Below are positions 7,820 to 25,029 of a stretch of DNA of 64,000 nucleotides, piece by piece; position 1 is the stretch's first letter, and every line of letters begins with the position of its first letter. A program made the position numbers and the translations under genes. Source of the DNA: Streptomyces mobaraensis NBRC 13819 = DSM 40847 (GTDB lineage Bacteria > Actinomycetota > Actinomycetes > Streptomycetales > Streptomycetaceae); contig NZ_CP072827.1 of assembly GCF_017916255.1 (NCBI RefSeq), positions 6,783,501 through 6,847,500 of the forward strand. The letters run 5' to 3'. Under the pieces are notes generated by a model. That model saw nothing but the letters and a program-made list of their open reading frames with translations. It searched no databases and was not told where the DNA came from.

Positions 7820-7821
7820 CA

Positions 7822-7835: not shown

Positions 7836-7839
7836 GATA

Positions 7840-7861
7840 GGGGCCCGCTTCGGCGGGCCCC
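7840..7861 (+). terminator. Rho-independent terminator with TTCG loop
   Basis: Nine-bp stem GGGGCCCGC / GCGGGCCCC around a TTCG tetraloop, followed by TCGTTTGTTTT. The clearest intrinsic terminator in the phage arm; separates polymerase from the genes upstream. Confidence 0.85.
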
Positions 7862-7891
7862 TCGTTTGTTTTACTTGGAGGACTTCCCTAG

Positions 7892-9811: not shown

Positions 9812-9834
9812 GCGGCGCTGAACAGGAAGAAGAC

Positions 9835-10314: not shown

Positions 10315-10328
10315 CTTTACATCCACAT
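10315..10328 (+). promoter_or_regulatory. Stoperator-like element 8
   Basis: CTTTACATCCACAT, last base off consensus, starting at the base after the deaminase stop codon. Last copy before the accessory region. Confidence 0.65.
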
Positions 10329-10396
10329 CACTTGCCGAGTGACCTTGGTTCTATGTAGAGTCTTCTTCGTAAGTTCACATAGGAGGGAGTTCGAGG

Positions 10397-10792
10397 ATGG
10401 CACTCAAGACATCTAAGGTCACGCTCGTAGAGGCAACCGTAGATGGGGTGAACTACTCGGGGAACGTCGAACTCACGCCCGCAAAGATGAAGGGCCTGGA
10501 GGCTGACGCCGAGGCGTACGAGGCGGCCGAAAAGGAGTACGAGGGCCAGGTCGAGAAGCTGAAGAAGGCTCGCGACACGGCTGCCGAGAAGTTCAAGAAG
10601 AGCCTGGAAGCCGCTGGTGTCCGTCCGATCGAGCCGAAGAAGCTCACCCCGGACGACTTGAAGAAGATCCGGCTGTGGGCGTCCCGAAACGGCCACACCA
10701 TCAACCCCAAGGCCCGCATCCCCGGCACGATCCGCGCGGGGTACGACAAGGCCGCGGCCGAGGGCAAGCTCCAGGACGACGAGAAGATCTAG
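10397..10792 (+). CDS. lsr2: Lsr2-like nucleoid-associated protein
   Basis: 131 residues. The N-terminal part has the Lsr2 dimerisation-like strand pattern, then a charged coiled stretch, then the C-terminal DNA-binding signature IRLWASRNGHTINPKARIPG with the RIPG variant of the Arg-Gly-Arg hook region. Cellular Lsr2 silences AT-rich foreign DNA. Phage-borne copies occur in actinophages and may protect or regulate the prophage. AGGAGG lies ten bases before ATG. An intrinsic hairpin follows. Confidence 0.88.
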   Translation: MALKTSKVTLVEATVDGVNYSGNVELTPAKMKGLEADAEAYEAAEKEYEGQVEKLKKARDTAAEKFKKSLEAAGVRPIEPKKLTPDDLKKIRLWASRNGHTINPKARIPGTIRAGYDKAAAEGKLQDDEKI

Positions 10793-10807
10793 ATCAATCA
10801 CATGGCG

Positions 10808-10828
10808 GGGGCCGCACTGGGCGGCCCC
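10808..10828 (+). terminator. Hairpin after lsr2
   Basis: Stem GGGGCCGC / GCGGCCCC with a five-base loop, followed by TTCC. Only a short T run, so moderate confidence. Confidence 0.6.
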
Positions 10829-10845
10829 TTCCAGGGAAGTAGTGC

Positions 10846-11211
10846 GTGAACAAAGTAGTAGTCATACCGGCCAACCTGGGTGCTCCGATCGAGGAGCTTG
10901 AGTGGCCGAAGGATCATGGCGAGCGCTTGGCGCTCGTACGCGAAAAGGTACAGCCAGCCGGTGACCTGATGCCCGTGTACGTCCCCGAGGCGTTCAACGG
11001 GTACCCGCTCGTGCTGTACGTCTGCGAGGAAACGCAGACCACCGGCCCGTGCGAGGGAAACCTCCGGGCCTCACTGATGATCACCCGTATCACGGACGAG
11101 CTGTTCCCGATCTACGGAAACACGCTGGGAGTACTGATCGGGCCTGGCGGCACGGAGCTGGGCTTCGCTGACGACGAGATTCAGCAGCTCAGGCGGCTCG
11201 CGGCGCCGTAA
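10846..11211 (+). CDS. Hypothetical phage protein, 121 aa
   Basis: GTG start with AGGGAAG upstream. Mixed α/β: MNKVVVIPANLGAPIEELEW at the N-terminus, FNGYPLVLYVCEETQTTGPC in the middle, ending in a helix DDEIQQLRRLAAP. I do not recognise the family. It is the last gene with phage-arm style before the hairpin at 11251 and has no stoperator-like element upstream. Confidence 0.65.
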   Translation: MNKVVVIPANLGAPIEELEWPKDHGERLALVREKVQPAGDLMPVYVPEAFNGYPLVLYVCEETQTTGPCEGNLRASLMITRITDELFPIYGNTLGVLIGPGGTELGFADDEIQQLRRLAAP

Positions 11212-11215
11212 CTAT

Positions 11216-11230
11216 CTGACGGATCGTCAG
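11216..11230. repeat. Short inverted repeat
   Basis: CTGACG / CGTCAG arms with a three-base centre, just after the 121-aa gene. Possible operator or weak hairpin. Confidence 0.4.
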
Positions 11231-11250
11231 CTTCTCTTGATCCAGCGACG

Positions 11251-11278
11251 GATGCCCCTGGAGCGCTACAGGGGCATC
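11251..11278 (+). terminator. Perfect 10-bp hairpin bounding the phage arm
   Basis: GATGCCCCTG / CAGGGGCATC with an eight-base loop, between the last phage-arm gene and the XRE regulator. No long T run. It may insulate the cargo from early transcription. Confidence 0.55.
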
Positions 11279-11317
11279 TGCTTGGGGTCAAGAGCGCCTG
11301 CGTCGTACGCTCGTGAT

Positions 11318-12511
11318 ATGACGAGCGCTGGTGAACGACTCAAGACGGTACGCAAGCGACGTGATTTGACCCAGCGGGAGCTGGCAGACGCTTCCGGGGT
11401 CTCAATCTCCACCCTCCGCCGCCTCGAACAAGGCGAACAGGAGACGGCCCGGATGGAGACCTGGCGGAAGTTCGCCGCGGCCCTCCGGGTGCCCACCATG
11501 ACCCTCGTCGGTGATCGGGAGCAGGGGCCGGACGAGGCGGGGGAGCCTTGGGAAGCGGTGAAGAAGGCACTCAATACGCCTGCGGCACTCCTGGAGAGCG
11601 ACGACGACGCCCCCACCGTGGAAGGGGTAACCGGAGCCCTCGACGACCTAGCGCGACTCGTCGCCCGCGACAAGTACCAAGACCTGGCCAACATCCTCCC
11701 AGCGCTACTTCGAGACGCTGACGCCCTCGGCACGGACGGCCGAGAGCTGCGCGTCCGTGCACTTCAGCGCGTCGGGTGGCTGCTCATCCACACCCGCCAG
11801 TTCACGGCGGCCGAAGACGCCCTGGCGCGCTCACTGGAAGAGGCCACCGACAGGGTTCAGGCCGCCGTGACGGTCGACTACATGTGCTGGTTGCTGCTCC
11901 GTCAAGGCAAGCTCACCGATGCCCGCGAGCTGGCCACCCAATGGGCCGACGACACTGAACCCGTCCGCCTGACCAGGGCCACCCCTGTGGAGCTGGCCTT
12001 GTGGGGCACGCTGCTGCTGCGGCTCTCCGGTACGGCGATCCGGGACAACCGGAGCGGAGAAGCCGAAGACGCCTTGAGGTACGCACGAGCTGCTGCTGAG
12101 GCGCTGGGCCGCGAGTGGCGATTCCCGCCGAACATCAGCAACTCCACGTTCGGACCGGTGACCGTTCTGCTCAAGACCGCCGAGAGCGCCGGCATCGTCG
12201 GGCAGCCGCAAGGAGTGCTGCGGATCGGCGACAAGGTGGAGAAGATCAGGAAGGCCAAGAGCCCGCGGTTCCGGGTGCAGATGACATCCAGCGACTGGAA
12301 CCGTCACCTTCTCGACGTGTCCGACGCCCATGCCCGGACCGGTAACTACGGCGTGTGCGTAGGGAAGTTGTCGGAGATCAACCGCAGTGCGCCCGAGTGG
12401 CTGCCCAATCAGCCTTTCGCCCGGGACATCCTCGGGCGAGTGATCGAAGAGCGCCGGAAGTTGACGCCAGAGATGCGCGACCTGGCAACTGCCGTACGTC
12501 TGCCGCTCTAA
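11318..12511 (+). CDS. XRE-family regulator with C-terminal helical (TPR-like) domain
   Basis: 397 residues from ATG 11318; an upstream extension of 27 codons lacks homology-like features. Residues about 5-60 form an XRE helix-turn-helix (ERLKTVRKRRDLTQRELAD, VSISTLRRLEQGE). The rest is a large α-helical region with TPR-like character (QFTAAEDALARSLEEATD). This architecture is widespread in Streptomyces as a regulator beside RiPP and other natural product genes. It is the first gene of the accessory block and likely controls the lanthipeptide genes; inverted repeats at 12524-12555 directly after it could be its operator. Confidence 0.8.
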   Translation: MTSAGERLKTVRKRRDLTQRELADASGVSISTLRRLEQGEQETARMETWRKFAAALRVPTMTLVGDREQGPDEAGEPWEAVKKALNTPAALLESDDDAPTVEGVTGALDDLARLVARDKYQDLANILPALLRDADALGTDGRELRVRALQRVGWLLIHTRQFTAAEDALARSLEEATDRVQAAVTVDYMCWLLLRQGKLTDARELATQWADDTEPVRLTRATPVELALWGTLLLRLSGTAIRDNRSGEAEDALRYARAAAEALGREWRFPPNISNSTFGPVTVLLKTAESAGIVGQPQGVLRIGDKVEKIRKAKSPRFRVQMTSSDWNRHLLDVSDAHARTGNYGVCVGKLSEINRSAPEWLPNQPFARDILGRVIEERRKLTPEMRDLATAVRLPL

Positions 12512-12523
12512 ACGATCACTCCG

Positions 12524-12555
12524 GGTACTTTCGTCGCGTGGGTATCGAAAGTACC
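12524..12555. promoter_or_regulatory. Inverted repeat, possible operator
   Basis: GGTACTTTCG / CGAAAGTACC with a 12-base centre, right after the regulator. A second symmetrical stretch (GTGTCTCGACAC) follows around 12585. Either a terminator or a regulator-binding site upstream of the small-gene operon. Confidence 0.45.
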
Positions 12556-12623
12556 AACGACAGGCGGCCTGGCCCCTCTTAGCGTGTCTCGACACACAGC
12601 ACACGAGGGGCAGGCGAAGTGTA

Positions 12624-12887
12624 GTGAGACAGAGGAGTGACACCCGCGCGGGCCTGGGTCGGATGATGGCCCAACGCGACATGAACGGGGCATTACCGGT
12701 TTCGACGACCACCCCCACCCCCTTGTCGGTCGGGTGCGCCGTTCGCGCCCCGGGCGAGTCGGCCGACGGGGCCGACCTTGCCCCGGGGACCATGCGCTAC
12801 CCCGACTGCACCTGCCGCCAGCACCGGGACGGCAGGGGAAAGCCGGACTCGTCGGTCCGGCTGCTGGCCAGTGGGGGTGCTCGATGA
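12624..12887 (+). CDS. Small hypothetical protein with CxC motif
   Basis: 87 codons from the first ATG; internal ATGs (for example codon 14) could be the true start. The middle is Pro/Thr-rich; a motif YPDCTCRQHRDGRGKPDSS lies near residue 60. Stop overlaps the ATG of the next gene (ATGA at 12884), which supports translation. Family not recognised; genes of this look accompany XRE regulators in Streptomyces. Confidence 0.5.
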   Translation: MRQRSDTRAGLGRMMAQRDMNGALPVSTTTPTPLSVGCAVRAPGESADGADLAPGTMRYPDCTCRQHRDGRGKPDSSVRLLASGGAR

Positions 12888-13453
12888 CCGCAAGCCGCCC
12901 CGACGCCCCGCCGCAGCACGAGAAGCCGATCGACCTGCTGGAGATCGCACGCACCGTGAGCCGGGCCCTCAGTCCAGTGGTGAGCGTCCCGCCCAACGTG
13001 GAGACCTTCACCGACCAGCTTCGCGGGCATGTGCACTCCTTGCTCGTGGCGATCGATGAAGACGGAACCAACCCCCAGCGGCTCCAGCTGTTCACCGACG
13101 CCTACCGGCTGATGGAACTCACCCGCACCCCGGCGGCGACGCCGTTCTACGCCTGGGAGCGGATGCGGGGACTGGCCGAAGTCGCGCAGAGGCTCGCGGG
13201 GCTGTACGAGCTCCGGAACCCGACCGCCCGCCCGGCCCCGACTTCAGAGCCGCTGCCGCCCCGGGAACCCGCGAGCCGGCGCCCGATGCGCAGACCTCCG
13301 CGCGGCAGGATGTTCGTTGCCCCGGCCTCGACCGGCGAGCGACCCACCCAGGTACTCCTGGAGCAGGCGGAGGCACCCGCGGAAAGCGGGCACCAGAAGT
13401 CCTCGCCCCGGCTGGCTGCCTGTGAGGGGCAGGGCGACCGTGAGCCGTCGTGA
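12884..13453 (+). CDS. Possible DUF6415-like protein
   Basis: 189 residues. The helical core LRGHVHSLLVAIDEDG ... RLMELTRTPAATPFYAWERMRGLAEVAQRLAGLYEL resembles the small DUF6415 proteins annotated beside natural product genes in Streptomyces. A disordered Pro/Arg-rich tail follows. Family assignment is from memory of the pattern and is tentative. Coupled by ATGA to the gene before; the next gene starts inside its last codons. Confidence 0.55.
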   Translation: MTASRPDAPPQHEKPIDLLEIARTVSRALSPVVSVPPNVETFTDQLRGHVHSLLVAIDEDGTNPQRLQLFTDAYRLMELTRTPAATPFYAWERMRGLAEVAQRLAGLYELRNPTARPAPTSEPLPPREPASRRPMRRPPRGRMFVAPASTGERPTQVLLEQAEAPAESGHQKSSPRLAACEGQGDREPS

Positions 13454-13700
13454 CCCCGAGTGGACTACGACGGAGGACCCGGGGATTTTGCAGGAGTTCT
13501 CCGTCGAGTGCACTGAGGAGGGCTGCGGGGCCGAGTTCGACATGAAGGGCGGGGAGGCCCTGGTCGAGCGCTGGAAGTGCCGCCACATGGACCGGACGGG
13601 TCACCGGCGGTTCTGGGAGACCTGGGGGCGCGCCACGATCCTCGCTCCGCCGCCCGGCGCGGTCGTCGCGAGCCAGATCGTAGGCCACCGGGCCCCCTAG
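13440..13700 (+). CDS. Possible DUF7848-like small protein
   Basis: GTG start at 13440 gives an 86-residue protein. Pattern EFSVECTEEGCGAEFDM ... VERWKCRHMDRTGHRRFWETWGR: two Cys pairs, then H..GH..F.E, as in DUF7848 proteins that often sit beside XRE regulators in Streptomyces. Likely zinc-binding. The start lies inside the preceding gene's last five codons; a terminator hairpin follows at 13708. Confidence 0.6.
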   Translation: MSRRDPEWTTTEDPGILQEFSVECTEEGCGAEFDMKGGEALVERWKCRHMDRTGHRRFWETWGRATILAPPPGAVVASQIVGHRAP

Positions 13701-13707
13701 AACTCCT

Positions 13708-13740
13708 GCCTCTCCCCTTGTGTCCCCCTCGGGGAGAGGC
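13708..13740 (+). terminator. Hairpin closing the regulator operon
   Basis: GCCTCTCCCC / GGGGAGAGGC with a 13-base loop, extended by AGAAC / GTTCT after mismatches. The 160 bases that follow hold the probable promoter of the lanthipeptide genes; TAGACT near 13837 is a candidate -10. Confidence 0.65.
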
Positions 13741-13900
13741 GGGTTCTCCAACTGGTCGCGCACGGCCCCATCTACCGTATTCAACAAGCCAGTTCGACTA
13801 CTCTTCGTGAAGCCTTGGTCCACGTTAGGTGTCCTAGACTCGGGGCTTCGATCACACCAGCACAGCTCTCTGAAGCAGCTCAGGGAAGGAAAACTGCTCC

Positions 13901-15121
13901 ATGACCGAAGCAACCGCCGAGTCCGAGCGCGCCGCAGAACTGCGAGGTGCCGTCGTGGATCGGCTCAAGGAGGACGGCACGATCGTGTCGCCCGGCGTCG
14001 AGGCCGCCATGCGCAAGGTCCCGCGTCACCTGTCCGTCCCGGAGGCGTCGCTCGAAGACGCCTACAACACCTACGACGCCGTGATCACTCAGAAGGACGA
14101 GCACGGCAATCACATCAGTTCGGTGTCCGCTCCGCAGATCCAGGCGATGCAGCTGGAGCAGGCCGGCATCCGCCCCGGCGACAACGTGCTGGAGATCGGC
14201 ACCAACGGGCCGAATGCTGCCTACATCGCGGAACTGGTCGGCCCCACGGGGCAGGTCACCACCGTCGACATCGACCCCGCGCCAGCAGCCCGCGCCGAGC
14301 AGTTCCTCAACCAGACCGGCTACACCAACGTCAACGTGGTCGTTGCCGACGGCGAGGACGGTTTCCCCAAGAACGCCCCCTTCGACGCGATCGTGGTGAC
14401 CGTCGGCGCCTGGGACATCCCGCCCGCCTGGGTTGACCAGCTCAAGGACGACGGCCGGCTCGTCGTGCCGCTGCGCATCAACGGCCTGACCCGCACCTAC
14501 GGGTTCCTCCGGCAGGGCGACCACCTGGTTGCCACGAGCGCCCACGTGTGCGGATTCGTCGCGGTACGGGGCGCGGGTACGCACCACCAGCAGTCGATGC
14601 AACTGCCCGGAGACGAGGGCGTCACCCTGCGCTTCGACGAGGGACCGCCCGCCGACCCTTCGCTACTGGCTGGCGTCCTGGACGGCGCCCGCGCCGAGAC
14701 GTGGACCGGGGTGACCGTCGCCAACCAGGAGCCCATCGGCACCCTCCAGATGTACCTGGCGACGCACGTGCCGACGTATTGCAGCATGTCCATCGACCCC
14801 GAACAGACCACCGGCAAGATCGGCCCCACCAACCTCGGCTTCTCGATGGTGGCGATCGACGGACCGAACTTCGGCTACATCGTGGTGCGCCGCAACACAG
14901 AGAAGAAGAACGCGGAGTTCGGGTTTCACGCTTTCGGCCCTGACGGGGCAGGATTCGTCGAGCGGCTGGCCGACATCGTCCGCGCCTGGAGCAAGCACCA
15001 CCGCAGCGGGGACCCGCACATCGCCGTCTACCCGGCGGGCACACCCGATGACCGGATCTCCGGCGACCGGATCATCAACAAGCAGCACAGCCGGATCTCG
15101 ATCTCCTGGCCGACCACGTAG
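13901..15121 (+). CDS. FxLD-system methyltransferase (PIMT-like)
   Basis: 406 residues. The first about 220 are a protein-L-isoaspartate O-methyltransferase-like fold: PRHLSVPEASLEDAYNTYDAV, VSAPQIQAMQLEQAGI, then the SAM loop VLEIGTNGPNAAYIAELVG (near 97) and VTTVDIDP. The C-terminal half is the extension found in lanthipeptide-associated members. Known: such enzymes (for example OlvSA) methylate an Asp in the modified peptide, leading through succinimide to isoAsp. Here the precursor offers Asp47-Gly48. First gene of the lanthipeptide operon, behind a terminator and a likely new promoter. Confidence 0.88.
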   Translation: MTEATAESERAAELRGAVVDRLKEDGTIVSPGVEAAMRKVPRHLSVPEASLEDAYNTYDAVITQKDEHGNHISSVSAPQIQAMQLEQAGIRPGDNVLEIGTNGPNAAYIAELVGPTGQVTTVDIDPAPAARAEQFLNQTGYTNVNVVVADGEDGFPKNAPFDAIVVTVGAWDIPPAWVDQLKDDGRLVVPLRINGLTRTYGFLRQGDHLVATSAHVCGFVAVRGAGTHHQQSMQLPGDEGVTLRFDEGPPADPSLLAGVLDGARAETWTGVTVANQEPIGTLQMYLATHVPTYCSMSIDPEQTTGKIGPTNLGFSMVAIDGPNFGYIVVRRNTEKKNAEFGFHAFGPDGAGFVERLADIVRAWSKHHRSGDPHIAVYPAGTPDDRISGDRIINKQHSRISISWPTT

Positions 15122-15178
15122 AACGTGGCGCCTGGCCAGGTCTCTCGCACCATCCCATCGGATAGAGAGAGTGATCAC

Positions 15179-15385
15179 ATGACCACTGCCGTACTCGACA
15201 GCGTCACCGCTCCGATCGGACTCCCGGCCGGGGATCTCACCGACGAGGAATTCCAGCTGGAGGTCCGCGTCGTCGTCGCCGAGAGCCCCGTCTACAACTT
15301 CGACTGCCCCACCAGCGACGGCTGCGGCAACACCTGCGCCAACGGGGCCAGCTCCTGCGTCTCCACCATCGAAGACGCTGCCTGA
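15179..15385 (+). CDS. lanA: FxLD-type lanthipeptide precursor
   Basis: 68 residues. The leader (about 1-38) contains FQLEVRVVV at 25-33, matching the FxLD box with Glu in place of Asp; this segment is expected to bind LanB. The core (about 39-68) has Cys at 43, 49, 53 and 60 and Ser/Thr at 45, 46, 52, 58, 59, 62 and 63, with the family-typical SDGCGNTC. Asp47-Gly48 is the likely target of the PIMT-like enzyme. ATG 15179 has an AGAGAGAG purine tract upstream. The final TIEDAA is short and acidic. A strong hairpin follows, separating it from lanB. Confidence 0.88.
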   Translation: MTTAVLDSVTAPIGLPAGDLTDEEFQLEVRVVVAESPVYNFDCPTSDGCGNTCANGASSCVSTIEDAA

Positions 15386-15396
15386 CGCATCCCTGT

Positions 15397-15434
15397 CGCC
15401 GGGGCGGTAGCCGATCGTGGCTGCCGCCCCGGCG
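15397..15434 (+). terminator. Strong intercistronic hairpin between precursor and lanB
   Basis: Eleven perfect pairs CGCCGGGGCGG / CCGCCCCGGCG, extended by GU, AU, GC, CG and CG pairs to about 16 bp around a six-base loop. No T run follows. It likely acts as a partial terminator or 3' mRNA stabiliser, so that precursor is made in excess over enzymes. Confidence 0.75.
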
Positions 15435-15474
15435 CCACCTATATGCACGCCCCCATACGAGAAGAGGGGTACCA

Positions 15475-18400
15475 GTGGCATACGGATCACCCATCACGTA
15501 CCGGTGGCAGCCAGGAACACTGCTACGCGCCTCCACCGCCTCTCGACAGATACCCGTGCCGGACCTCGACCTGTACGGCGACGACGTCACCGCTCAGGGC
15601 TGCCAGTGGCTCGCCGAGGTGTGGCGCGACCCGATACCCGACGCGCTGGCCGCCGCCAGCCCCGTCCTGTGTCAGCGCGTCGCCGAGATCCTGGACGGTG
15701 CCCCCAGCGATGCCCGCCGAATACGCCGGGTCGTCCGGTCCGTGGCGGCCTATCTCCTGCGCTGGAACCACCGGCCCACACCGTTCGGGGTGTTCGCCGG
15801 GGTGGCCCCCGCGGTGCCGGCTCACACAGCCCGGGTCCAGTGGGGAGACCGGTACCGGACGGTGCTCCGGCCCGATTCCGACTGGCTGACCGACGTCATC
15901 ACCCAGCTGGAGGCAGACCCTGCTGTCCTTGCCCGGCTGAGCGTCGTCGCCAACAACACGGGCCGCTCACGCGGTACCCGGCACGTGGTGGACGGAATGC
16001 CGACCGACGCACGCACTGCTGGCTATGCCCCGGTCGAGCTGTCAGTCCGCCGCACCCGGCCCGTGGCGGCCGTGCTCGCCGCCGCCCGCACCCCGATCCC
16101 GTACGACGTGCTCGTGCACTCCCTGACCGAGCAGTTCCCCAGCGCGCGCCCCGATCAGCTCACCGGCCTGATCGCCGACCTGGTGAGCAAGCACATCCTG
16201 ATCAGCTCTCTGTGGCCCCCGATGACATCGGTCGACACGCTTCACCACCTGTGCAACGAGCTGGAGAAGGCCGGCACCGCCAGCATCGCGGAACTGGCGT
16301 CCCAGCTCGCGTCGATCCGTGACGGCTTGAACCATCCCGATGCCGACGCCCCATGGACGCCCGGCGCCCGGCTGTCGCTCAGCATGCAGCGCGTGAGCGC
16401 TACCGGTCGCGTTCCGCTGCTGGTCGACGCCGCCCTGGACTGCGCCCTCCAGGTTCCCGAAGCCGTGCTGAACGAAGCCGCCGAAGCGGCTCAGGTCATG
16501 CACCAGCTGTCGCCCTACCCGTACGGGTATCCGCAGTGGCGCGACTACCACCAGCGGTTCCTTGACCGGTACGGCAACGATGCCGTCGTACCCGTGCTGG
16601 ATCTGGTCGCCGACAGCGGACTCGGGATGCCGGCGGGGTTCCTGGGCTCGGAGCGCACCCGGCCGCCGTATCAGGTGACCGACCGGGACGAGAAGGTCAT
16701 GCGTCTGCTCCAGGAGGTGATACTCGACGCCAGCGGTGAGCTTGTCCTGACCCGGGCGACGATCGCCGACCTGACCGCCGACCACACGGAACCGCTCCTG
16801 CCCGTGCCCCGGGCGGAGATAGCCGTGGAGATCCACGCCCCCACCGTGGAAGCCGTAGAGCGCGGCGACTACCGGCTACTGGTCACCGGAGCGCCCCGCC
16901 CCGGCAGCAGCATGTTCGGCCGGTTCGCGCACCTGCTCCCACCGCCCGCGCGGGCCGCGCTCACCGACTCGTACGCGACCGCGAGCCCCGGCGCGATCCC
17001 GGCACAGTTGTCGTTCGCCCCTCGGCGGCGCCGCAACGAGAATGTATCCCGCACCGCGCAGGTGCTGCCTCACATGATTTCCCTCGGCCAGTACCACGAG
17101 CCCGGCCCCGGCGTGATCCCGCTCGACGACCTGGCGGTAACCGCGGACGATCGCCGGTTCTACCTGGTCCGCATGTCGACCGGACAGCACGTCGAACCCC
17201 GCGTTGCCCACGCACTCGAAGCATCCGTCCACACGCCGCCGCTCGCACGGTTCCTGGCGGAGATCAACACCGCCCGCAGCCCTGCCTATAAGACGTTCAC
17301 CTTCGGCGTCGCCAACACGCTGCCCTACCTGCCACGCGTCCGGTATAAGCGGGCGATCCTCGCGCCGGCCCGATGGCTGCTGGAAGCCGAAAACCTACCC
17401 ACCCGCTCCGCGCCCATGGCCGACTGGAACAAGGCCCTGGACCGGTGGCGCGAACGGCTCCACGTCCCCGACCACATTGCCCTGGTCGAGAACGATCAGC
17501 AGCTCCCCATAGATCTTGATCAGCAGATTCACCGGGCCCTGCTCCGATCCTGTGTGGACCGGACGCGCCTTGTCGAGGTACGCGAAACCACGACCCCGCA
17601 GGACCGGGCTTGGATCGGCCGTCCTCACCAGATTCTGATCCCCCTGGCGAACTCAACCCTTCCCGATCTGACGCATCGTCAGATAGATGTCGCTGTCACC
17701 AGCCCCCTGATGCCCGGCCGGTCCCCCGTCCTGTACGCCCGCCTGTTCGCACACCCACAGCGGTACGACGAGATCCTGACCGGCCACCTGCCCAGCCTGC
17801 TCGACCAGTTCGCCACCGTGCCGCCTTGGTGGTTCCGGCGTCACCGCGATGCGGCCCACCCGGACTCCGACCAGCGCCTAGACCTTTACCTGCACCTCCC
17901 AGGTCCGGACACCTTTGGCCCGGCCGCTCAGCAGGTCCACGGCTGGGCCGACACCCTCCACCGCCAGCACCTGGCCTCACACCTAGAGCTGTCCACCTAC
18001 CTGCCACAGGCCGGCCGCTACGGACACGGCTCCGCCCTGGACGCCGTGCACCAGGTCTTCGCCGCGGACTCAGCCGCCAGCGTGACCCAGATCCGTGCCG
18101 TCGCGGATGATGTGGCTACGGGGCAAGCCCTCACCGCTGCAAGCATGGTGGACATCGTCATGCAGTTCACCGGCGGCCCGGAACGGGCAGCCGACTGGCT
18201 GACCCACGCCTTGCCCCGCGAACACGGTCCGCTCTCCCGAGACCGGACTGCGCTTGCCCAGGCCCTGGCCGACCCCGCCCGCACCGCCCTGCTGGCCTTA
18301 CCCGGAGGGCCGGACATCGCGGCCTCCTGGCAACACCGCGCCGCTGCCCTGCGCGCCTACCGCGACCAACTGGCCGCCGAGCGCGACCCCGACACCGTGT

Positions 18401-18519
18401 TGCGGTCGCTACTCGATCAACACTGCATCCGGGCTTTACCCGTCGACCCCGACCACGAACGCGCCGTCCGCCGACTCGCCCGAGCCTGCGCCCTGCGACA
18501 CCGGGAGCGGCAGCCGTGA
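15475..18519 (+). CDS. lanB: Class I lanthipeptide dehydratase LanB
   Basis: 1014 residues, full length. Uses glutamyl-tRNA to glutamylate Ser/Thr and eliminates to Dha/Dhb. N-terminal glutamylation domain: RWNHRPTPFGVFAGV near residue 100 (family RxTPFGxFAG box), HQLSPYPYGYPQWRDYHQRF near 340, and the Arg-rich LSFAPRRRRNENVSR near 520. C-terminal elimination (SpaB_C-type) domain from about 740: YARLFAHPQRYDEIL, PPWWFRRHRD, SDQRLDLYLHLPG. GTG start with GAGGGG upstream. The stop overlaps lanC (GTGA). Confidence 0.93.
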   Translation: MAYGSPITYRWQPGTLLRASTASRQIPVPDLDLYGDDVTAQGCQWLAEVWRDPIPDALAAASPVLCQRVAEILDGAPSDARRIRRVVRSVAAYLLRWNHRPTPFGVFAGVAPAVPAHTARVQWGDRYRTVLRPDSDWLTDVITQLEADPAVLARLSVVANNTGRSRGTRHVVDGMPTDARTAGYAPVELSVRRTRPVAAVLAAARTPIPYDVLVHSLTEQFPSARPDQLTGLIADLVSKHILISSLWPPMTSVDTLHHLCNELEKAGTASIAELASQLASIRDGLNHPDADAPWTPGARLSLSMQRVSATGRVPLLVDAALDCALQVPEAVLNEAAEAAQVMHQLSPYPYGYPQWRDYHQRFLDRYGNDAVVPVLDLVADSGLGMPAGFLGSERTRPPYQVTDRDEKVMRLLQEVILDASGELVLTRATIADLTADHTEPLLPVPRAEIAVEIHAPTVEAVERGDYRLLVTGAPRPGSSMFGRFAHLLPPPARAALTDSYATASPGAIPAQLSFAPRRRRNENVSRTAQVLPHMISLGQYHEPGPGVIPLDDLAVTADDRRFYLVRMSTGQHVEPRVAHALEASVHTPPLARFLAEINTARSPAYKTFTFGVANTLPYLPRVRYKRAILAPARWLLEAENLPTRSAPMADWNKALDRWRERLHVPDHIALVENDQQLPIDLDQQIHRALLRSCVDRTRLVEVRETTTPQDRAWIGRPHQILIPLANSTLPDLTHRQIDVAVTSPLMPGRSPVLYARLFAHPQRYDEILTGHLPSLLDQFATVPPWWFRRHRDAAHPDSDQRLDLYLHLPGPDTFGPAAQQVHGWADTLHRQHLASHLELSTYLPQAGRYGHGSALDAVHQVFAADSAASVTQIRAVADDVATGQALTAASMVDIVMQFTGGPERAADWLTHALPREHGPLSRDRTALAQALADPARTALLALPGGPDIAASWQHRAAALRAYRDQLAAERDPDTVLRSLLDQHCIRALPVDPDHERAVRRLARACALRHRERQP

Positions 18520-19739
18520 TCACCACGACCAGCCCGGCCTTACTGGCGGACGCCTTCGCCAGGCACCTGGCCGTCCCCGCTCCGCCGCCCGAAGACCGGC
18601 CCTGGGCAGCGCAAACCCTGGCTACCGGCGCCGCCGGGACCGCCCTTCTCCACATCGAGCGCGCCCGCACCGGGCACGGCACCTGGCACCAGGCCCACAC
18701 CTGGGTCAAGATCACCGTGGCCACCGACATCAGCGCCGCCGACACCAGCGGCCTGTACTTGGGAGCGCCCGCCGTCGCGTTCATGCTCGACTGCGCCGTC
18801 ACCGCCGACGCAACCCGCTACCAGGACGCCCTGGCTGTCATGGACCGACACGTCATCGACCTCGCCCACCGGCGAGCGGACGCGGCTGAGGCCCGCATGC
18901 ACGGCAGAGGCCCGGCCAGCTTCCACGAGTACGACATCTTCTACGGGCTGACCGGCGTCGGCGCCTACCTGCTCCGCCAGAACCCGTCCGGCCCTGCGAT
19001 GGAACGCGTCCTCAACTACCTCGTTCGGCTGACCCGACCCACCCGGGACCAGGACCACGGGGAACTGCCCGGTTGGTGGGTCGGCCACCGCCCCGACCTC
19101 ACCCCGGCCACGGTCCCCACCGGACACGCCAACCTCGGCACGGCACATGGCATCACCGGGCCGCTGCTGCTCCTTGCCCGCGCCCTGCGCCAGGGCGTCA
19201 CCGTCGACGGCCACGGAAACGCCATCGACACCATCCTCGACTGGCTCGATGCGTGGCGGCAGGACGGACCAGCAGGACCCTGGTGGCCTGAGCACCTTCA
19301 CCTCGGCGAACTCCGCGCCGGCCACCCCGCCCAACGGGGACCGGCCCGACCCAGCTGGTGCTACGGCACGCCCGGCATCGCCCGCGCCGGACAGCTCGCC
19401 GCCCTCGCTCGCCGCGACATCGCACGCCAGCGCCTGTTCGAGGACGCCATGGCCCGATGCCTGACCGACCCGGTGCAGCTATCCCGGCTTACAGACGCGG
19501 GCCTGTGCCACGGATGGGCAGGCGTTTACCAGACCGCATGGCGCGCGGCACACGACGCTGCCACCCCGGCCCTACGTGCCACCCTGCCCGGATTGGCCGC
19601 CGCCCTGACCCAACACGCTCGCCCCGGCCACGATCCGGGCCTCCTGCAAGGCGACGCCGGCACTGCCCTCGCTCTGACCACCGCAGCCCACGACACCGCG
19701 CCGACCTCGGGATGGGACGCATGTCTACTGATCGACTAA
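18516..19739 (+). CDS. lanC: Lanthipeptide cyclase LanC
   Basis: 407 residues. Zinc enzyme adding Cys thiols to Dha/Dhb to close (methyl)lanthionine rings. Motifs: YDIFYGLTGVGAYLL near 143, NLGTAHGITGPLLLLARAL near 205, RPSWCYGTPGIARAG near 285 (zinc Cys) and GLCHGWAGVYQTAW near 330 (zinc Cys-His). All zinc ligands are present. GTG start is coupled to lanB; the 3' end overlaps the next gene by 19 bases. Confidence 0.93.
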   Translation: MITTTSPALLADAFARHLAVPAPPPEDRPWAAQTLATGAAGTALLHIERARTGHGTWHQAHTWVKITVATDISAADTSGLYLGAPAVAFMLDCAVTADATRYQDALAVMDRHVIDLAHRRADAAEARMHGRGPASFHEYDIFYGLTGVGAYLLRQNPSGPAMERVLNYLVRLTRPTRDQDHGELPGWWVGHRPDLTPATVPTGHANLGTAHGITGPLLLLARALRQGVTVDGHGNAIDTILDWLDAWRQDGPAGPWWPEHLHLGELRAGHPAQRGPARPSWCYGTPGIARAGQLAALARRDIARQRLFEDAMARCLTDPVQLSRLTDAGLCHGWAGVYQTAWRAAHDAATPALRATLPGLAAALTQHARPGHDPGLLQGDAGTALALTTAAHDTAPTSGWDACLLID

Positions 19740-20722
19740 ACCGACCCGCCCATCTGGAAGCGACCCTGCACGCCGTGCTGGAGGTCCTGACCGGCGCCAG
19801 CACGGACACCGCCGCAGCCCACGCAGGACTCGAACCCGTCGACCTGGAGGCCGCAGTCGCCGTCTACCAGCAGGCCGGGCAGCAAGCACTCGCCCAGCAG
19901 ACGAGGCCCCCAGCGTGGCGTCAGCTGTACATCCAGTTCACCGACTGGGACAAGGCTGAGCAGACCGCCACCGACCATATCGCCCCCGTCCTGGAACTGG
20001 CTCAACAGGACAGGCTGATCACGGGCTGGTGGTTCATGCGCAAGCACCCATGCTGGCGAATGCGACTGCTGCCAGCCCCCAAGGCGCAGTTCCCGCCGGC
20101 ACTGGCCGACACGCTGGACGCACTCACCGCCGACGGGAGAGTCCACCGATGGTGGCCCGGCATCTACGAACCCGAAAGCGCGGCGTTCGGCGGTGACACC
20201 AGCATGACCATCGCCCACACCCTGTTCCACTCCGACAGCCGCGCCATCCTCACCACAGCACGGGGAGAACTGGGCCGCCGCGAGTTGTCACTGCTGCTGT
20301 GCGCCACCATGATGCGCGCCGCCGGACTGGAGTGGTACGAGCAGGGCGACGTCTGGCACCGCGTCTCCCAGGAACGGCCCCTGCCCCCAGACGTGCCGGT
20401 TGCCAAAGTCCAGGCCATGGCCGGGAGCCTGCGGCATCTACTCCTCGCCGACACCAGCCCCACCAGCACGATGCTCCAGTCGGACCGGACGCTCAAGCCT
20501 GCCATCGACTGGGTCCGCGCGTTCCGGGACGCGGGGAAAGACCTCGGCACAGCGGCCCGTGAGGGAACCCTCGACCGCGGCCTGCGCGAGGTCACGTCTT
20601 ACCACGTGATCTTCCACTGGAACCGGATCGGACTGCCGGCCCGCACTCAGAGCGTTCTCGCTCACGCGGCACGTACCGCGATCCTGCACACCGCTGACTC
20701 CTCGGAGAGGCTGATGCCGTGA
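19721..20722 (+). CDS. Stand-alone thiopeptide-type (SpaB_C) biosynthesis protein
   Basis: 333 residues. After a helical N-terminus (about 1-65), residues 66 onward match the lanthipeptide/thiopeptide SpaB_C elimination domain: WRQLYIQFTDWDKAEQTATD, ITGWWFMRKHPCWRMRLLP, WWPGIYEPESAAFGGDTSM, then YHVIFHWNRIGLPARTQSVL. Because LanB already has such a domain, this is a second copy, possibly acting in trans on particular residues or as a partner subunit. ATG 19721 lies in the last codons of lanC; the stop overlaps the next GTG. Confidence 0.85.
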   Translation: MSTDRLNRPAHLEATLHAVLEVLTGASTDTAAAHAGLEPVDLEAAVAVYQQAGQQALAQQTRPPAWRQLYIQFTDWDKAEQTATDHIAPVLELAQQDRLITGWWFMRKHPCWRMRLLPAPKAQFPPALADTLDALTADGRVHRWWPGIYEPESAAFGGDTSMTIAHTLFHSDSRAILTTARGELGRRELSLLLCATMMRAAGLEWYEQGDVWHRVSQERPLPPDVPVAKVQAMAGSLRHLLLADTSPTSTMLQSDRTLKPAIDWVRAFRDAGKDLGTAAREGTLDRGLREVTSYHVIFHWNRIGLPARTQSVLAHAARTAILHTADSSERLMP

Positions 20723-21900
20723 CCGCGCAACATCCGGAGGAGGGGCTCCACCGGCTCGCCAGGCGGTTTCCGCTGGTCAGCCGCTCCCACCTCGTCTATC
20801 CCAGCTTCACCGCCCGCATCGAAGAGGTACGCGCCTGCGCAGAGGAGTCGACTCAGGACAAGCCGCTTCTCGACCGGATCAACCTCGCGTGCGCCACCTG
20901 GAATCTGTCCGCACTGATCGCCTCCGACTGCGGCCTCACAGACTTGGCGACAGACCTGTGCCTGCGGCAGCTCCGCCTCTTCCAGGCAGCATGGCCCGTC
21001 ACCGGGGACACCGCCATCGCCTGTCTCCAGCCGATCATCAACCTCGTACGCCTGACCGCCCGAGCGGCAGACCCGCATGCCGCCTATCAGCAGCTGATGA
21101 GCGTGTACCGCGCCGTCCATGACGGCGGCACCGTGATCATTCACGGTCATCCCATCGACCTCACGGGCTTCACCACCGACGCGACCCGGGACCACATCGA
21201 GCCCTGGCTACGATCCGTCCTGCTCGAAGACGGCACACGCCTCCTGGTCGCCACCGATCAATGGCCCCAAGCAGCAGAGCACGCGACCGTTTACGACACG
21301 GCGCCCGAACGACTGCACGACGGTAGGCAGGTGCATGTCATGGCAAGCCTGCACGCCGCCGACCCGGACGTCGCCAATTCCCTGATCGAGAAGGCCACGA
21401 TCACCGAGCCATGGGAGAAGGCCGTCGCGAAGATCCTCCGTCATTACGCCGACCACCGTGCGGGCTGCGTCACGGCAGAGGGGTTCACGGCGGTGACGGG
21501 TGCTGTGTGGGATGCTCTGGAACCGACTCCACCGCACCTGCGTATGTTCCGGGTGAGGCTGGTCCTGGCGGCGGCCGAGCTGGCATCAGAAGGCTGCGAA
21601 GCCCAGGTGGCCCCCCTGCACAACGCGATCGTCATCGACACCACACAGTCGAACGACGCGTACGCTGCGCGCGAGATCCTGCGCCGCTCCGTCTTGCCGA
21701 TCAGCGAGCGGCCACGTCGTGAGCTGGAAGCGATCGTCTGTGACGGCGGACTCGGCCGGGGGGCCCTGCCGGAGACGTCGCTGTCCACGCTGATGCAGGC
21801 TGTCAGCATCGCCGAAGCGAGCCTCACTCATTGTCTTGCCGATGAAGAGGCGGTGAGGCCGCTGGAAGCTCCATCATGTCCAGCGTCCAGTGCACCGTAG
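20719..21900 (+). CDS. Unknown helical protein of the lanthipeptide operon
   Basis: 393 residues, GTG start coupled (GTGA) to the SpaB_C-type gene. Mostly α-helical without membrane segments or signal peptide. Segments such as INLACATWNLSALIASDCGL and TDLCLRQLRLFQAAW recall tandem helical repeats like the C-terminal domain of the regulator at 11318. I do not recognise a family. Cotranscription suggests a scaffold, regulatory or self-protection role; this is inference. Confidence 0.7.
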   Translation: MTAQHPEEGLHRLARRFPLVSRSHLVYPSFTARIEEVRACAEESTQDKPLLDRINLACATWNLSALIASDCGLTDLATDLCLRQLRLFQAAWPVTGDTAIACLQPIINLVRLTARAADPHAAYQQLMSVYRAVHDGGTVIIHGHPIDLTGFTTDATRDHIEPWLRSVLLEDGTRLLVATDQWPQAAEHATVYDTAPERLHDGRQVHVMASLHAADPDVANSLIEKATITEPWEKAVAKILRHYADHRAGCVTAEGFTAVTGAVWDALEPTPPHLRMFRVRLVLAAAELASEGCEAQVAPLHNAIVIDTTQSNDAYAAREILRRSVLPISERPRRELEAIVCDGGLGRGALPETSLSTLMQAVSIAEASLTHCLADEEAVRPLEAPSCPASSAP

Positions 21901-22069
21901 TGATCGGCTCTGCATCGTCGAGCTCCTAGCCGTGATGGACGACCTCACCCTGCTGCATGACGCCTACCTCTCCACCCTCGATTTGCCGGAAGCATGATCA
22001 GGTCTTGGCAACCGCCGTCGAGCGGGGTGAGATGGCCCTACGGGGCCGATCACTGGGGCAGGGGACGCA

Positions 22070-22969
22070 ATGGCGCTGGCAGACTGGGGTCACATTCAGT
22101 TCTCGGGCGAAATCACGATCACCAGGTACGTGGGAGAGATCGGGGACGACCTGCGCGAGCCCCTGCACTGCCCAGAGTGCGGAACGGCAGAACGGCTCAC
22201 CCTCGGCACACAAGGGGATGAGGGCCTGGTCGTGTGCCCCATCTGCGGCCACGAGTGGACAGATAGCCGGGTCACTGCACGTGACGTGAGGCAGATGCTC
22301 CACCTCGCCGCCATGGGACAGCCGTCGGCCTTCCCGAATGGTCAGATGCAGACCGTCGTCTTTCCCCCGCTGGACGAAGATCGGACCCTCGCTCCGCAAC
22401 CGGAGTGGGTCGATGACGACCCGCGGGTCCGGTGGGAACTCGGCTGCTTGATCTCCACAGGGACGATGTTCACCCACTGCCTCCGCGCCGCCCGGCATCT
22501 GTCTTCCTTCGCCATCGCCTCGGACACAGGTGTCTACACCCGTCTCTATCCCCAAGCCGGCGGCAGCGCTGTCGACGCCCACATGGCAACGGTGCTCGTA
22601 GCCCTGTCTCTGTACGAGATCGCGTTCCAGGCGCGAGCCACGAAGATGTTCGAGATCCGGCTGGCGCAAGCAGTCAGCGCACTCGGCCCTGAGCGCGCTC
22701 GCAGAGTGAAGGACCTGCGGCCGATCTTCGACTTCGACCCCGACGCACCGTGCCATCTGCGCGTGACCGACGCGAACCGCATGGACACGGCCGAAGCGCA
22801 CGATTGGGAGCGATGGCGCAGGACCGCCGTGGAGATCCTGGAGTTCAGCATCCAGGACATCGTCAACCACTCACACCTGTCGAAGTCGGCCGACGAGGTA
22901 CGTGCTAGCGATCGGGAACGCCAGTGGTACCCGGATGATCTGACCTGGTACACGGGGAACCGGGTTTAA
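22070..22969 (+). CDS. Unknown zinc-ribbon protein at the end of the cargo
   Basis: 299 residues. Residues about 33-62 form a zinc ribbon: CPECGTAERLTLG ... VVCPICGHEW. The remainder is helical and acidic/aromatic, including a non-membrane helix MATVLVALSLYEIAFQARA, and ends DDLTWYTGNRV. GGGGAC lies upstream of ATG. It is separated by 169 bases from the lanthipeptide operon (only a 20-codon frame at 21935 is seen there) and followed by a strong terminator, so it may be its own unit. Function unknown. Confidence 0.7.
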   Translation: MALADWGHIQFSGEITITRYVGEIGDDLREPLHCPECGTAERLTLGTQGDEGLVVCPICGHEWTDSRVTARDVRQMLHLAAMGQPSAFPNGQMQTVVFPPLDEDRTLAPQPEWVDDDPRVRWELGCLISTGTMFTHCLRAARHLSSFAIASDTGVYTRLYPQAGGSAVDAHMATVLVALSLYEIAFQARATKMFEIRLAQAVSALGPERARRVKDLRPIFDFDPDAPCHLRVTDANRMDTAEAHDWERWRRTAVEILEFSIQDIVNHSHLSKSADEVRASDRERQWYPDDLTWYTGNRV

Positions 22970-22978
22970 GTAAGGAAA

Positions 22979-23013
22979 AGCCCCCTGTTCCTATCGCGTG
23001 GGAACAGGGGGCT
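22979..23013 (+). terminator. Terminator bounding the cargo
   Basis: Thirteen-bp perfect stem AGCCCCCTGTTCC / GGAACAGGGGGCT around a nine-base loop. Closes the accessory block before the dodecin-integrase module. Confidence 0.8.
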
Positions 23014-23089
23014 CAAGCTGCCCGCCTCGACTCGCGCCGCCCCCCGGTTCCGTGCACTGTGGATGCATCGGAACGAAGGAGCGGCCGAC

Positions 23090-23308
23090 ATGGGAGACCA
23101 CGTCTACCGAGTCACCGAGATCGTTGGATCATCCACCGAAGGAATCGACCCAGCTATCCGGAACGGCATCAACCGTGCCTGCCAAAGTCTCCGCGAGGTC
23201 GATTGGTTCGAAGTCACCGAGATCCGCGGCCACGTCGAGAACGGACAGCTAGCCCACTTCCAGGTCGGCCTGAAGGTCGGCTTCCGTCTGGAGGACTCCA
23301 GCGGCTAG
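23090..23308 (+). CDS. Phage-borne intact dodecin
   Basis: 72 residues, the full dodecin length. Dodecins are dodecameric flavin-binding/storage proteins. Visible: VYRVTEIVGSSTEG, AIRNGINRACQSL, DWFEVTEIRGHVENGQLAHF (the Trp of the flavin stack) and QVGLKVGFRLED. ATG 23090 is preceded by GAAGGAG. It matches the truncated host copy at 25182 at 27 of the first 39 residues but continues to a normal end. Its TAG overlaps the integrase stop codon on the other strand. A likely functional replacement for the host gene broken by integration. Confidence 0.92.
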   Translation: MGDHVYRVTEIVGSSTEGIDPAIRNGINRACQSLREVDWFEVTEIRGHVENGQLAHFQVGLKVGFRLEDSSG

Positions 23309-24969: not shown

Positions 24970-25029
24970 GAGAGGGTGCTTGCCTTACGTCTCTGATCAC
25001 ACCCCCCGCCCGCAATGGTAAAGGACCGG

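What the first reader, a model, noticed from the sequence alone, without database searches (positions are those of the whole stretch)
11318..22969. A complete FxLD lanthipeptide locus carried as cargo inside a temperate phage
Seen: XRE regulator, three small coupled genes, PIMT-like methyltransferase, FxLD-type precursor, full LanB, LanC and a separate SpaB_C protein lie between a phage replication arm and the phage integrase, bounded by hairpins at 11251 and 22979. Known: FxLD systems are usually regarded as chromosomal. Inference: in cluster A-like phages this interval is small and non-essential, so the phage may give lysogens a modified peptide that acts as antibiotic, signal or superinfection factor. 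I know of no described phage-encoded lanthipeptide of this class.
Basis: partly seen in the sequence, partly recalled or inferred. Interest (0 to 1): 0.93.

Follow-up and report, generated by a model that had tools for sequence, protein, structure and literature searches.

The report
Prophage carrying a captured lanthipeptide gene cassette
A seemingly complete 64 kb virus integrated in a Streptomyces chromosome carries an intact six-gene cassette for making a modified ring-containing peptide, related to cassettes in bacterial chromosomes, and the best guess is that the peptide helps the infected cell resist other viruses.

Summary
One host dodecin gene is cut in two, 64,089 bp apart, at an 8-bp att core. 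The structural arm (left of the window), replication arm, lanthipeptide genes and serine integrase all lie between the halves: one prophage. The captured unit is sharply delimited, window ~13.9-21.9 kb: PIMT methyltransferase, FxLD precursor, LanB, LanC, SpaB_C, TPR-like protein. It is collinear at ~78-82% DNA identity with 8 of 8 chromosomal loci compared, with nothing shared outside. In four phages with the same regulator family the regulator-integrase interval is 52 bp to 4.5 kb; here 10.8 kb. The core has the TxDGC motif of aspartimide-forming lanthipeptides. Four of the eight loci adjoin a GAF-containing conservon, as does the cluster of the reported anti-phage lanthiphage_Sco. Five viral contigs carry related clusters elsewhere in the tree. 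A 2023 survey already reports class I lanthipeptide clusters in Streptomyces prophages, so 'none described' is wrong. Best mechanism: intracellular anti-phage peptide giving superinfection exclusion (inferred, about 45%). The prophage also carries a complete dodecin gene.

The parts
1..25072 (.). right 25 kb of the 64,089-bp prophage (left part lies before the window, to window position -39024)
   Evidence: att cores and split dodecin; phage genes
2926..4935 (+). B12-dependent ribonucleotide reductase (phage)
   Evidence: phrog_367 768.8 bits; 49% to R4
5800..6498 (+). ThyX-type thymidylate synthase (phage)
   Evidence: phrog_85 219 bits; 50% to R4
7931..9811 (+). family A DNA polymerase (phage)
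   Evidence: PF00476; phrog_17
10397..10792 (+). Lsr2-like protein
   Evidence: PF23359; phrog_1223
11251..11278 (.). strong hairpin at the XRE gene's 5' end
   Evidence: fold, ends; not a T-tailed terminator
11237..12511 (+). XRE regulator; ORF from 11237, start uncertain; phage-type family but not exclusive to phages
   Evidence: phrog_5823 369.5 bits; 54 of 55 phage records with a match are Streptomyces phages; 32 of 246 genus genomes (G000 included) have a match at E 1e-80 or less
12884..13453 (+). DUF6415 protein (outside the captured unit)
   Evidence: PF19979 29.7 bits (cut-off 27.5) on the longer ORF 12734-13453
13488..13700 (+). DUF7848-like protein (below cut-off)
   Evidence: PF25232 23.5 bits, cut-off 24.5; homologue beside XRE in G059
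13901..15121 (+). cassette gene 1: PIMT-type methyltransferase (LanSA), FxLD system
   Evidence: TIGR04364 495.9 bits
15179..15385 (+). cassette gene 2: FxLD precursor peptide, 68 aa, core with TSDGC
   Evidence: TIGR04363 49.8 bits; alignment A3
15475..18519 (+). cassette gene 3: LanB dehydratase (start between 15475 and 15556 uncertain)
   Evidence: PF04738 746.9 bits, PF14028 108.8 bits
18516..19739 (+). cassette gene 4: LanC cyclase
   Evidence: PF05147 125.2 bits
19775..20722 (+). cassette gene 5: stand-alone SpaB_C elimination-domain protein
   Evidence: TIGR03891 206 bits; PF14028
20719..21900 (+). cassette gene 6: all-alpha, TPR-like protein of unknown role
   Evidence: present in 8 of 8 chromosomal loci; model pLDDT 86.5
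13952..21853 (.). extent of DNA homology to chromosomal cassettes = captured unit
   Evidence: blastn, 8 of 8 loci
22070..22969 (+). 299-aa protein with a sub-threshold zinc-ribbon match; accessory, unknown
   Evidence: PF08274 23 bits, cut-off 30.8; three homologues besides itself in the protein search, all three named Streptomyces
22979..23013 (.). hairpin after the cargo
   Evidence: fold, ends
23090..23308 (+). complete dodecin gene inside the prophage
   Evidence: PF07311 99.4 bits; one of three dodecin matches in G000
23305..24969 (-). serine integrase
   Evidence: PF00239, PF07508; phrog_95
25030..25182 (-). ORF holding the 5' part of the interrupted host dodecin gene
25065..25072 (.). 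att core on the right (8 bp)
   Evidence: second copy at window -39024

Best explanation
Shown: a temperate prophage with all hallmark genes (64,089 bp, integrase plus att sites in the host dodecin gene) carries, between a phage-type XRE regulator and its serine integrase, an intact six-gene class I (FxLD/TxDGC, 'lanthimiditide') lanthipeptide cassette whose relatives lie in Streptomyces chromosomes. Inferred: LanB and SpaB_C dehydrate Ser/Thr of the precursor core, LanC closes thioether rings with the four Cys, and the PIMT enzyme methylates Asp47 of TSDGC, giving an aspartimide/isoaspartate. No exporter, dedicated leader peptidase or immunity gene was recognised, so the product probably acts inside the lysogen. 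Most likely role (about 45%): an anti-phage peptide of the published lanthiphage type that blocks development of other phages (superinfection exclusion), expressed in the lysogen under phage/XRE control instead of the conservon that accompanies several chromosomal copies.
For: Prophage limits: split dodecin, 8-bp core, rejoined full gene; 57 of 61 genomes searched (G000 among them) have a dodecin match and G000 is the only one showing the gene in two pieces. Gene identities. Cassette borders near 13952 and 21853 in 8 of 8 loci. LanB nests in a chromosomal clade, support 97/94. All six genes open; dN/dS 0.25-0.40 for the five longer genes, each against four chromosomal copies. XRE-integrase interval 52 bp to 4.5 kb in 4 of 4 phages examined that have the XRE homologue. 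Conservon with a GAF protein beside 4 of 8 cassette loci (Pfam in L101, homologues in L097, L098 and G109), the same neighbour set as cvn8/CvnF8 beside the S. coelicolor cluster whose theoretical product is called lanthiphage_Sco (PMC13343842 and PMC8510531, passages). Reported lanthiphages: class I LanBC, Actinomycetota, active inside the cell, block late phage transcription (PMC12360287 section 14; PMC12715929 passages). Recurrent phage carriage: 5 IMG/VR contigs, capsid and major tail genes on either side in L134, portal beside L135 and L137. No transporter among 19 Pfam families found in 36 further prophage proteins.
Against: No activity was tested. The prophage itself has no conservon match; adjacency in the 4 loci may be one ancestral event, and only 7 of 24 chromosomal loci checked have three or more conservon hits. 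The 2023 prophage survey states that it found no clusters for known anti-phage molecules in prophages (PMC10023795; lanthiphages were not yet described). Missing exporter is weak evidence: 2 of 8 loci have an ABC gene nearby, the endolysin has peptidase domains and one 189-aa prophage protein has an HEAAH zinc-peptidase-like motif. At 64 kb the prophage is larger than R4 (51.1 kb), Hank144 (50.5 kb) and Attoomi (41.9 kb), so packaging of the cargo is unproven. The XRE may be a host-type regulator: its best homologue (67%) is in a contig without other phage matches, beside a DUF7848 homologue and a PIMT-like stretch, and the XRE-DUF stretch has cassette-like G+C (0.683). dN/dS sums over both lineages and does not prove selection inside the phage.
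Confidence: 0.5

Rival explanations
1. The peptide is a secreted bacteriocin or signal that benefits the lysogen against competing bacteria or alters host development; the phage gains because its host does.
For: Lanthipeptides are classically antibacterial; phage-borne biosynthetic clusters as interbacterial weapons have been proposed (Dragos 2021, seen only as a citation). Four of 8 chromosomal relatives sit beside a signalling conservon, and the cvn8 system beside the S. coelicolor lan cluster is a regulator in interspecies interactions (PMC8510531 passages).
Against: No exporter, dedicated leader peptidase or immunity gene recognised in the cassette or among the prophage proteins scanned, though small proteins were mostly not scanned; reported lanthiphages show no obvious antibiotic activity (PMC12360287 section 14).
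Confidence: 0.27
2. Passenger cargo: a chance capture without a role for the phage, possibly added after integration to a prophage now too large to package.
For: Prophage is 13-22 kb larger than R4, Hank144 and Attoomi.
Against: All six genes open, core motif intact, low dN/dS in the enzymes; related clusters in other viral contigs on separate branches suggest selection for carriage.
Confidence: 0.18
3. The integrase and cargo belong to a different element inserted beside a prophage that ends before 11.2 kb.
For: Sharp borders of the cassette and higher G+C (0.690 against 0.631 for the prophage left of it).
Against: The two halves of one host gene flank the complete structural arm, replication arm, cargo and integrase; the integrase start is 96 bp from the right core.
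Confidence: 0.03

Closest known systems
FxLD / LanSA (PIMT) class I lanthipeptides, 'lanthimiditides' such as OlvA
   Same: LanB, LanC, PIMT methyltransferase, FxLD-type leader, TxDGC core (PMC13001092 and PMC10787088 passages)
   Different: Carried by a prophage; leader reads FQLE instead of FxLD; separate SpaB_C protein; direct sequence comparison with OlvA not made
Lanthiphages (Shomar et al. 2024, seen only through citing papers), e.g. lanthiphage_Sco of S. coelicolor
   Same: Class I LanBC clusters of Actinomycetota; 4 of 8 chromosomal relatives of our cassette adjoin a conservon with a GAF protein, as the S. coelicolor cluster adjoins cvn8
   Different: In the prophage the conservon is absent and an XRE gene is upstream; anti-phage activity untested; sequence kinship not tested
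Class I lanthipeptide clusters in Streptomyces prophages (PMC10023795, antiSMASH, clusters of any kind in 13 of 2112)
   Same: Same class, same genus, prophage location (passages)
   Different: The passages read give no borders, donor, att sites or mechanism; whether this locus is among them could not be checked (supplements not open to me)
Clusters in IMG/VR contigs L134-L138
   Same: LanB, LanC, SpaB_C, PIMT and TPR-like protein with FxLD-type precursors; L134, L135 and L137 beside phage structural genes
   Different: SpaB_C is fused to PIMT; LanB only 33-39% identical, and matched over about 70% of its length in L137 and L138; other branches of the tree
Temperate Streptomyces phages R4, Hank144, phiELB20 and Attoomi
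   Same: XRE family beside or near the integrase; RNR and ThyX (R4, Hank144, phiELB20) or PolA (Attoomi) replication genes
   Different: No lanthipeptide genes annotated in the stretches opened; smaller genomes; Attoomi integrase only 22% identical

Membership tests
FxLD class I lanthipeptide system | LanB with both domains and LanC | tested here: met
FxLD class I lanthipeptide system | FxLD methyltransferase above curated cut-off | tested here: met
   TIGR04364 495.9 bits against 320
FxLD class I lanthipeptide system | FxLD-family precursor above cut-off with TxDGC core | tested here: met
   TIGR04363 49.8 against 30; T45, D47, G48, C49 invariant in 14 of 14 rows
FxLD class I lanthipeptide system | lanthionine rings and aspartimide actually formed | not testable with these tools
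   needs mass spectrometry
Lanthiphage (anti-phage lanthipeptide) | class I LanBC cluster in Actinomycetota | tested here: met
Lanthiphage (anti-phage lanthipeptide) | sequence kinship to published lanthiphages | not tested
   preprint and its sequences not held
Lanthiphage (anti-phage lanthipeptide) | conservon neighbour as in lanthiphage_Sco (feature of that example, not known to define the family) | tested here: inconclusive
   absent in the prophage; present beside 4 of 8 nearest chromosomal cassettes and 7 of 24 loci in all
Lanthiphage (anti-phage lanthipeptide) | location in a defence island | tested here: inconclusive
   PADLOC on 10 proteins of the cargo region gave only matches to generic HTH domains and one of the methyltransferase domain to mad2 (63 bits); flanks of chromosomal loci not scanned with PADLOC
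Lanthiphage (anti-phage lanthipeptide) | protects cells against phage | not testable with these tools
   bench assay
Temperate dsDNA tailed phage (prophage) | att sites flanking the element and an integrase | tested here: met
Temperate dsDNA tailed phage (prophage) | terminase, portal, capsid, tail and replication genes | tested here: met
Temperate dsDNA tailed phage (prophage) | inducible and packages its DNA | not testable with these tools
   bench assay

The most novel reading that the evidence does not exclude
Actinophages repeatedly capture anti-phage lanthipeptide cassettes from Streptomyces chromosomes, disconnect them from their conservon switch, and use the intracellular, aspartimide-bearing peptide as a chemical superinfection-exclusion weapon against rival phages while being immune themselves; this prophage additionally restores the host dodecin gene that its integration breaks.
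Probability: 0.33. Interest if true: 0.86.

Novelty: new variant of a known kind. Interest (0 to 1): 0.63.

Why it matters
Class I precursors with a conserved Asp beside a PIMT gene are the most abundant class I precursors in Actinobacteria (PMC7268733 passages), and a 2026 review calls connecting aspartimide RiPPs to biological function the bigger challenge (PMC13001092 passages). A prophage that carries one complete, with a delimited cassette and known att sites, gives a clean system: delete the cassette from the lysogen and ask which phages plate again. If confirmed it would show phages using a peptide natural product as immunity against other phages. No paper making that link appeared in the listings of my searches (the library holds no preprints).

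Tried and rejected
Rejected: separate insertion of integrase and cargo (split dodecin encloses everything). Rejected: that the complete dodecin at 23090 is the host's own copy - it lies inside the att sites and is 69% identical in protein to the rejoined host gene, so I read it as phage-borne. Led nowhere: DNA-level search of known phages (15 records, each a 64-bp RNR match); LanB in 50,697 phage records (1 match, a 152.8-kb Staphylococcus record at 21%); single-sequence LanB scan of IMG/VR (none; the alignment scans 73 and 74 then found relatives); integrase scan of IMG/VR (none); PADLOC (matches to generic HTH domains, and of the methyltransferase domain to mad2); PDB fold search of gene 6 (one match with E below 0.001, at TM-score 0.11; TPR-like matches were weaker); LanB in plasmids (65 of 72,556 records, all under 60% identity, not followed). 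Idea tested without result: that the prophage lacks the GNAT gene named as lanthiphage escape locus; R4 gp79 has no homologue in the prophage (best E 1.0), but Pfam did not recognise R4 gp79 either, so absence is not established. Twelve further LanB loci of the 38-41% type were checked for structural-gene matches with the called proteins of L134-L138 and of this prophage: no capsid, portal or major tail match in 12 of 12.

XRE gene: I first took it as phage backbone. One search found matches in 32 of 246 genus genomes, the best foreign one (67%) in a contig with a DUF7848 homologue and a PIMT-like stretch and no other prophage match, so its origin stays open. Of the 31 foreign genomes, 7 neighbourhoods were opened; one (G089) has an integrase match 4 kb away.

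Related prophages: three genomes with terminase hits were opened (G257, G169, G156); they share head, tail and some replication genes but no cassette match; only the stretches fetched were seen.
Full report
WHERE IT IS. The window is bases 6,783,501-6,847,500 of a single-contig 7,574,085-base genome. A genome of the same genus (G078) has a contig of the same length, 8,306,813, as NZ_CP089312.1, Streptomyces sp. GQFP, so the host is a Streptomyces; its species is not known. I fetched the 40 kb to the left and use negative window coordinates for them.

THE PROPHAGE. My gene call gave 79 genes between the ends. The left arm, mostly on the minus strand, holds terminase, portal, major capsid, major tail, tape measure, collagen-like fibre and endolysin genes; the right arm, mostly on the plus strand, holds primase, sigma factor, B12-dependent RNR, ThyX, family A polymerase and an Lsr2-like protein. 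The serine integrase is at 23305-24969 minus. The ends are given by the host dodecin gene: residues 1-42 match at window 25057-25182 and residues 36-72 at -39122..-39012, both minus strand, with an 8-bp identical core at -39024 and 25065. Rejoined, the halves encode an uninterrupted 72-aa dodecin. Of 61 genomes searched, G000 included, 57 have a dodecin match; only G000 shows it in two pieces. In 6 of 20 intact loci examined, EgtD, which lies to the right of the prophage here, is next to dodecin; synteny of the left flank was not seen in those 20. The element is 64,089 bp.

A DODECIN GENE INSIDE. A third, complete dodecin gene (23090-23308) lies between cargo and integrase, convergent with it. 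It is 69% identical in protein to the rejoined host gene. I read it as a replacement copy carried by the phage for the gene its integration breaks; that is inference. One dodecin was found among 50,697 phage records and one in a single-sequence scan of IMG/VR (no convincing integrase match in the 10 kb fetched). A paper search for dodecin with attB or integrase listed 15 of 1,897 papers; the one holding all three words has dodecin only in its reference list.

THE CASSETTE. Six genes: FxLD PIMT methyltransferase, 68-aa precursor, LanB, LanC, stand-alone SpaB_C protein and a 393-aa protein. The last is all-alpha and TPR-like in an AlphaFold2 model (pLDDT 86.5, 8 sequences); the PDB search gave no informative match. 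DNA comparison with eight chromosomal loci (six named; G068 and G109) gives one collinear block from 13952-13954 to 21836-21862 (21443 for L096, where it is in two pieces), 78-82% identical apart from one 86% piece, and no similar DNA outside it in window 10500-23500. So XRE, DUF6415, DUF7848 and the 299-aa gene show no DNA homology to these loci, although a DUF6415 gene also stands upstream in four of them. All six genes were found in all eight loci, the precursor only over 53 of 68 residues in L096. Beyond G078, G109 and G068 (77, 76, 66%) LanB in the 246 genus genomes falls to 50%. In a LanB tree of 30 chosen rows the prophage copy is inside a chromosomal clade (97/94, midpoint root). Nei-Gojobori counts give dN/dS 0.25-0.40 for the five longer genes against four chromosomal copies each; the precursor is too short for a useful value (0.55-1.35).

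THE PEPTIDE. In 14 of 14 aligned precursors F25, L27, C43, T45, D47, G48, C49, T52, C53, S58 and C60 are invariant. The motif TSDGC fits the TxDGC motif reported for lanthipeptides modified by PIMT homologues, which methylate that Asp and form an aspartimide that hydrolyses to isoaspartate and Asp (PMC13001092 and PMC10787088, passages). The leader reads FQLE; 12 of the 13 other rows have FxLD or FAPLD. Ring topology and cleavage site are unknown.

THE INTERVAL WITHOUT CARGO. The XRE protein matches 55 phage records, 54 of them Streptomyces phages. In the four of these that I opened, XRE lies close to the integrase: Hank144 52 bp, R4 136 bp, phiELB20 349 bp, Attoomi 4.5 kb. Here the distance is 10.8 kb. 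Sycamore, opened because its terminase is near, has no XRE match in the 20.7 kb fetched. Against a purely phage origin of XRE: 32 of 246 genus genomes, G000 included, match at E 1e-80 or less, and the best foreign one (67%) stands beside a DUF7848 homologue and a PIMT-like stretch in a contig with no other match to the prophage; the XRE-DUF stretch has G+C 0.683, like the cassette (0.690) and unlike the rest (0.63).

OTHER PHAGE-BORNE CLUSTERS. Alignment scans of IMG/VR gave three contigs with LanB and seven with the methyltransferase. Five in all (L134-L138) match LanB, LanC, SpaB_C, PIMT and the TPR-like protein and have FxLD-type precursors upstream; in L137 and L138 LanB is matched only over about 70% of its length. 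The other five hold only the methyltransferase match among cassette genes. L134 has capsid and decoration genes on one side and a major tail gene on the other; L135 and L137 have a portal gene downstream. L136 has nearly the gene layout of L134 but its flanks were not scanned; two flanking proteins of L138 gave no match; none of the five records matched the phrog_9 terminase. In the tree these fall on three other branches (L134/L136, L135, L137/L138) among chromosomal rows, so phages probably acquired such clusters more than once. A survey of 2106 predicted actinobacterial prophages reports several class I lanthipeptide clusters in Streptomyces prophages, and says that no clusters for known anti-phage molecules were identified (PMC10023795, passages).

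CHROMOSOMAL CONTEXT AND THE FUNCTION ARGUMENT. In 4 of 8 loci (L097, L098, L101, G109) the cassette is followed by kinase, Roadblock, DUF742, GTPase and GAF genes, a conservon, and preceded by DUF6415, a LuxR-type regulator and SAM methyltransferases (Pfam for L101; homologues in the others). In G013 the same frame (conservon proteins 76-89%, SAM methyltransferase 94%) holds a different lan cluster between two methyltransferases, one of them 76% identical to ours: the cassette behaves as an exchangeable unit in that slot. In S. coelicolor the lan cluster SCO6927-SCO6938 lies beside cvn8, whose accessory protein CvnF8 has a GAF domain and which represses it; the theoretical product is named lanthiphage_Sco (PMC8510531, PMC13343842, passages). 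Lanthiphages are described in citing papers as class I LanBC lanthipeptides of Actinomycetota, in defence islands, active inside the cell, blocking late phage transcription, without obvious antibiotic activity (PMC12360287 section 14; PMC12715929 passages). The original work is not held. From class, neighbours and lack of a recognised exporter I infer that the prophage cassette most likely gives superinfection exclusion. I give that about 45%.

WHAT SPEAKS AGAINST. No sequence comparison with a published lanthiphage was possible. Across 24 chromosomal loci checked, with flanks of unequal length, 7 have three or more conservon matches, so adjacency is not general. ABC genes lie near the cassette in L100 and G068. 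The prophage is 13 kb or more larger than R4, Hank144 and Attoomi, so packaging is unproven. Of 63 called prophage proteins of 80 aa or more, 51 were scanned with Pfam and 11 with PHROGs only, one at the join of L002 and L003 not at all, and of the shorter ones only a few, so a small immunity protein could have been missed. One 189-aa protein (L002 3594-4163) has an HEAAH motif and might be a peptidase.

VERDICT. A real prophage with an intact, captured lanthipeptide cassette; a new variant of a known kind, since prophage-located class I lanthipeptide clusters and anti-phage lanthipeptides are both already reported, separately. What is new here, in the material I could search, is the delimited capture, the att sites, the link of related chromosomal loci to a conservon slot like that of lanthiphage_Sco, the recurrence in viral contigs, and the dodecin copy.

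Noticed in passing
window 23090-23308 and 25030-25182: The phage integrates inside the host dodecin gene and carries a complete dodecin gene of its own, apparently replacing the broken host gene.
   Followed up: partly
L151/L152 (G013) against L101: The same conservon-linked chromosomal slot holds either our cassette type or a strongly diverged lan cluster between two PIMT genes, as if the cassette were exchanged as a unit.
   Followed up: partly
L134, L135, L136, L137 and L138 (IMG/VR): Five viral contigs carry class I lanthipeptide clusters with a SpaB_C-PIMT fusion; in L134 it sits between capsid and major tail genes.
   Followed up: partly
G000 4839721-4842603: The host chromosome has a second, distant LanB (33% identity) outside the prophage.
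   Followed up: no
window 24995-25054: Hairpin between the integrase start and the att core; the 5' part of the host dodecin gene reads towards int, so the host promoter might drive int.
   Followed up: no
L099 8350-9570: The cassette methyltransferase gene of S. sparsogenes has an in-frame stop at codon 204 of 407, a broken gene or a sequencing error.
   Followed up: no
L182 (G059) 1000-5200: XRE regulator 67% identical to the prophage's, beside a DUF7848 homologue and a PIMT-like stretch: perhaps a recurring regulator-methyltransferase module.
   Followed up: partly
L002 3594-4163 (window -36406..-35837): 189-aa prophage protein with an HEAAH zinc-peptidase-like motif, family phrog_6361 of unknown function.
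   Followed up: no
MG543995.1 8176-9879: A 152.8-kb record named Staphylococcus phage UPMK_1 holds a LanB-like gene (21%); the size suggests bacterial DNA in the record.
   Followed up: no
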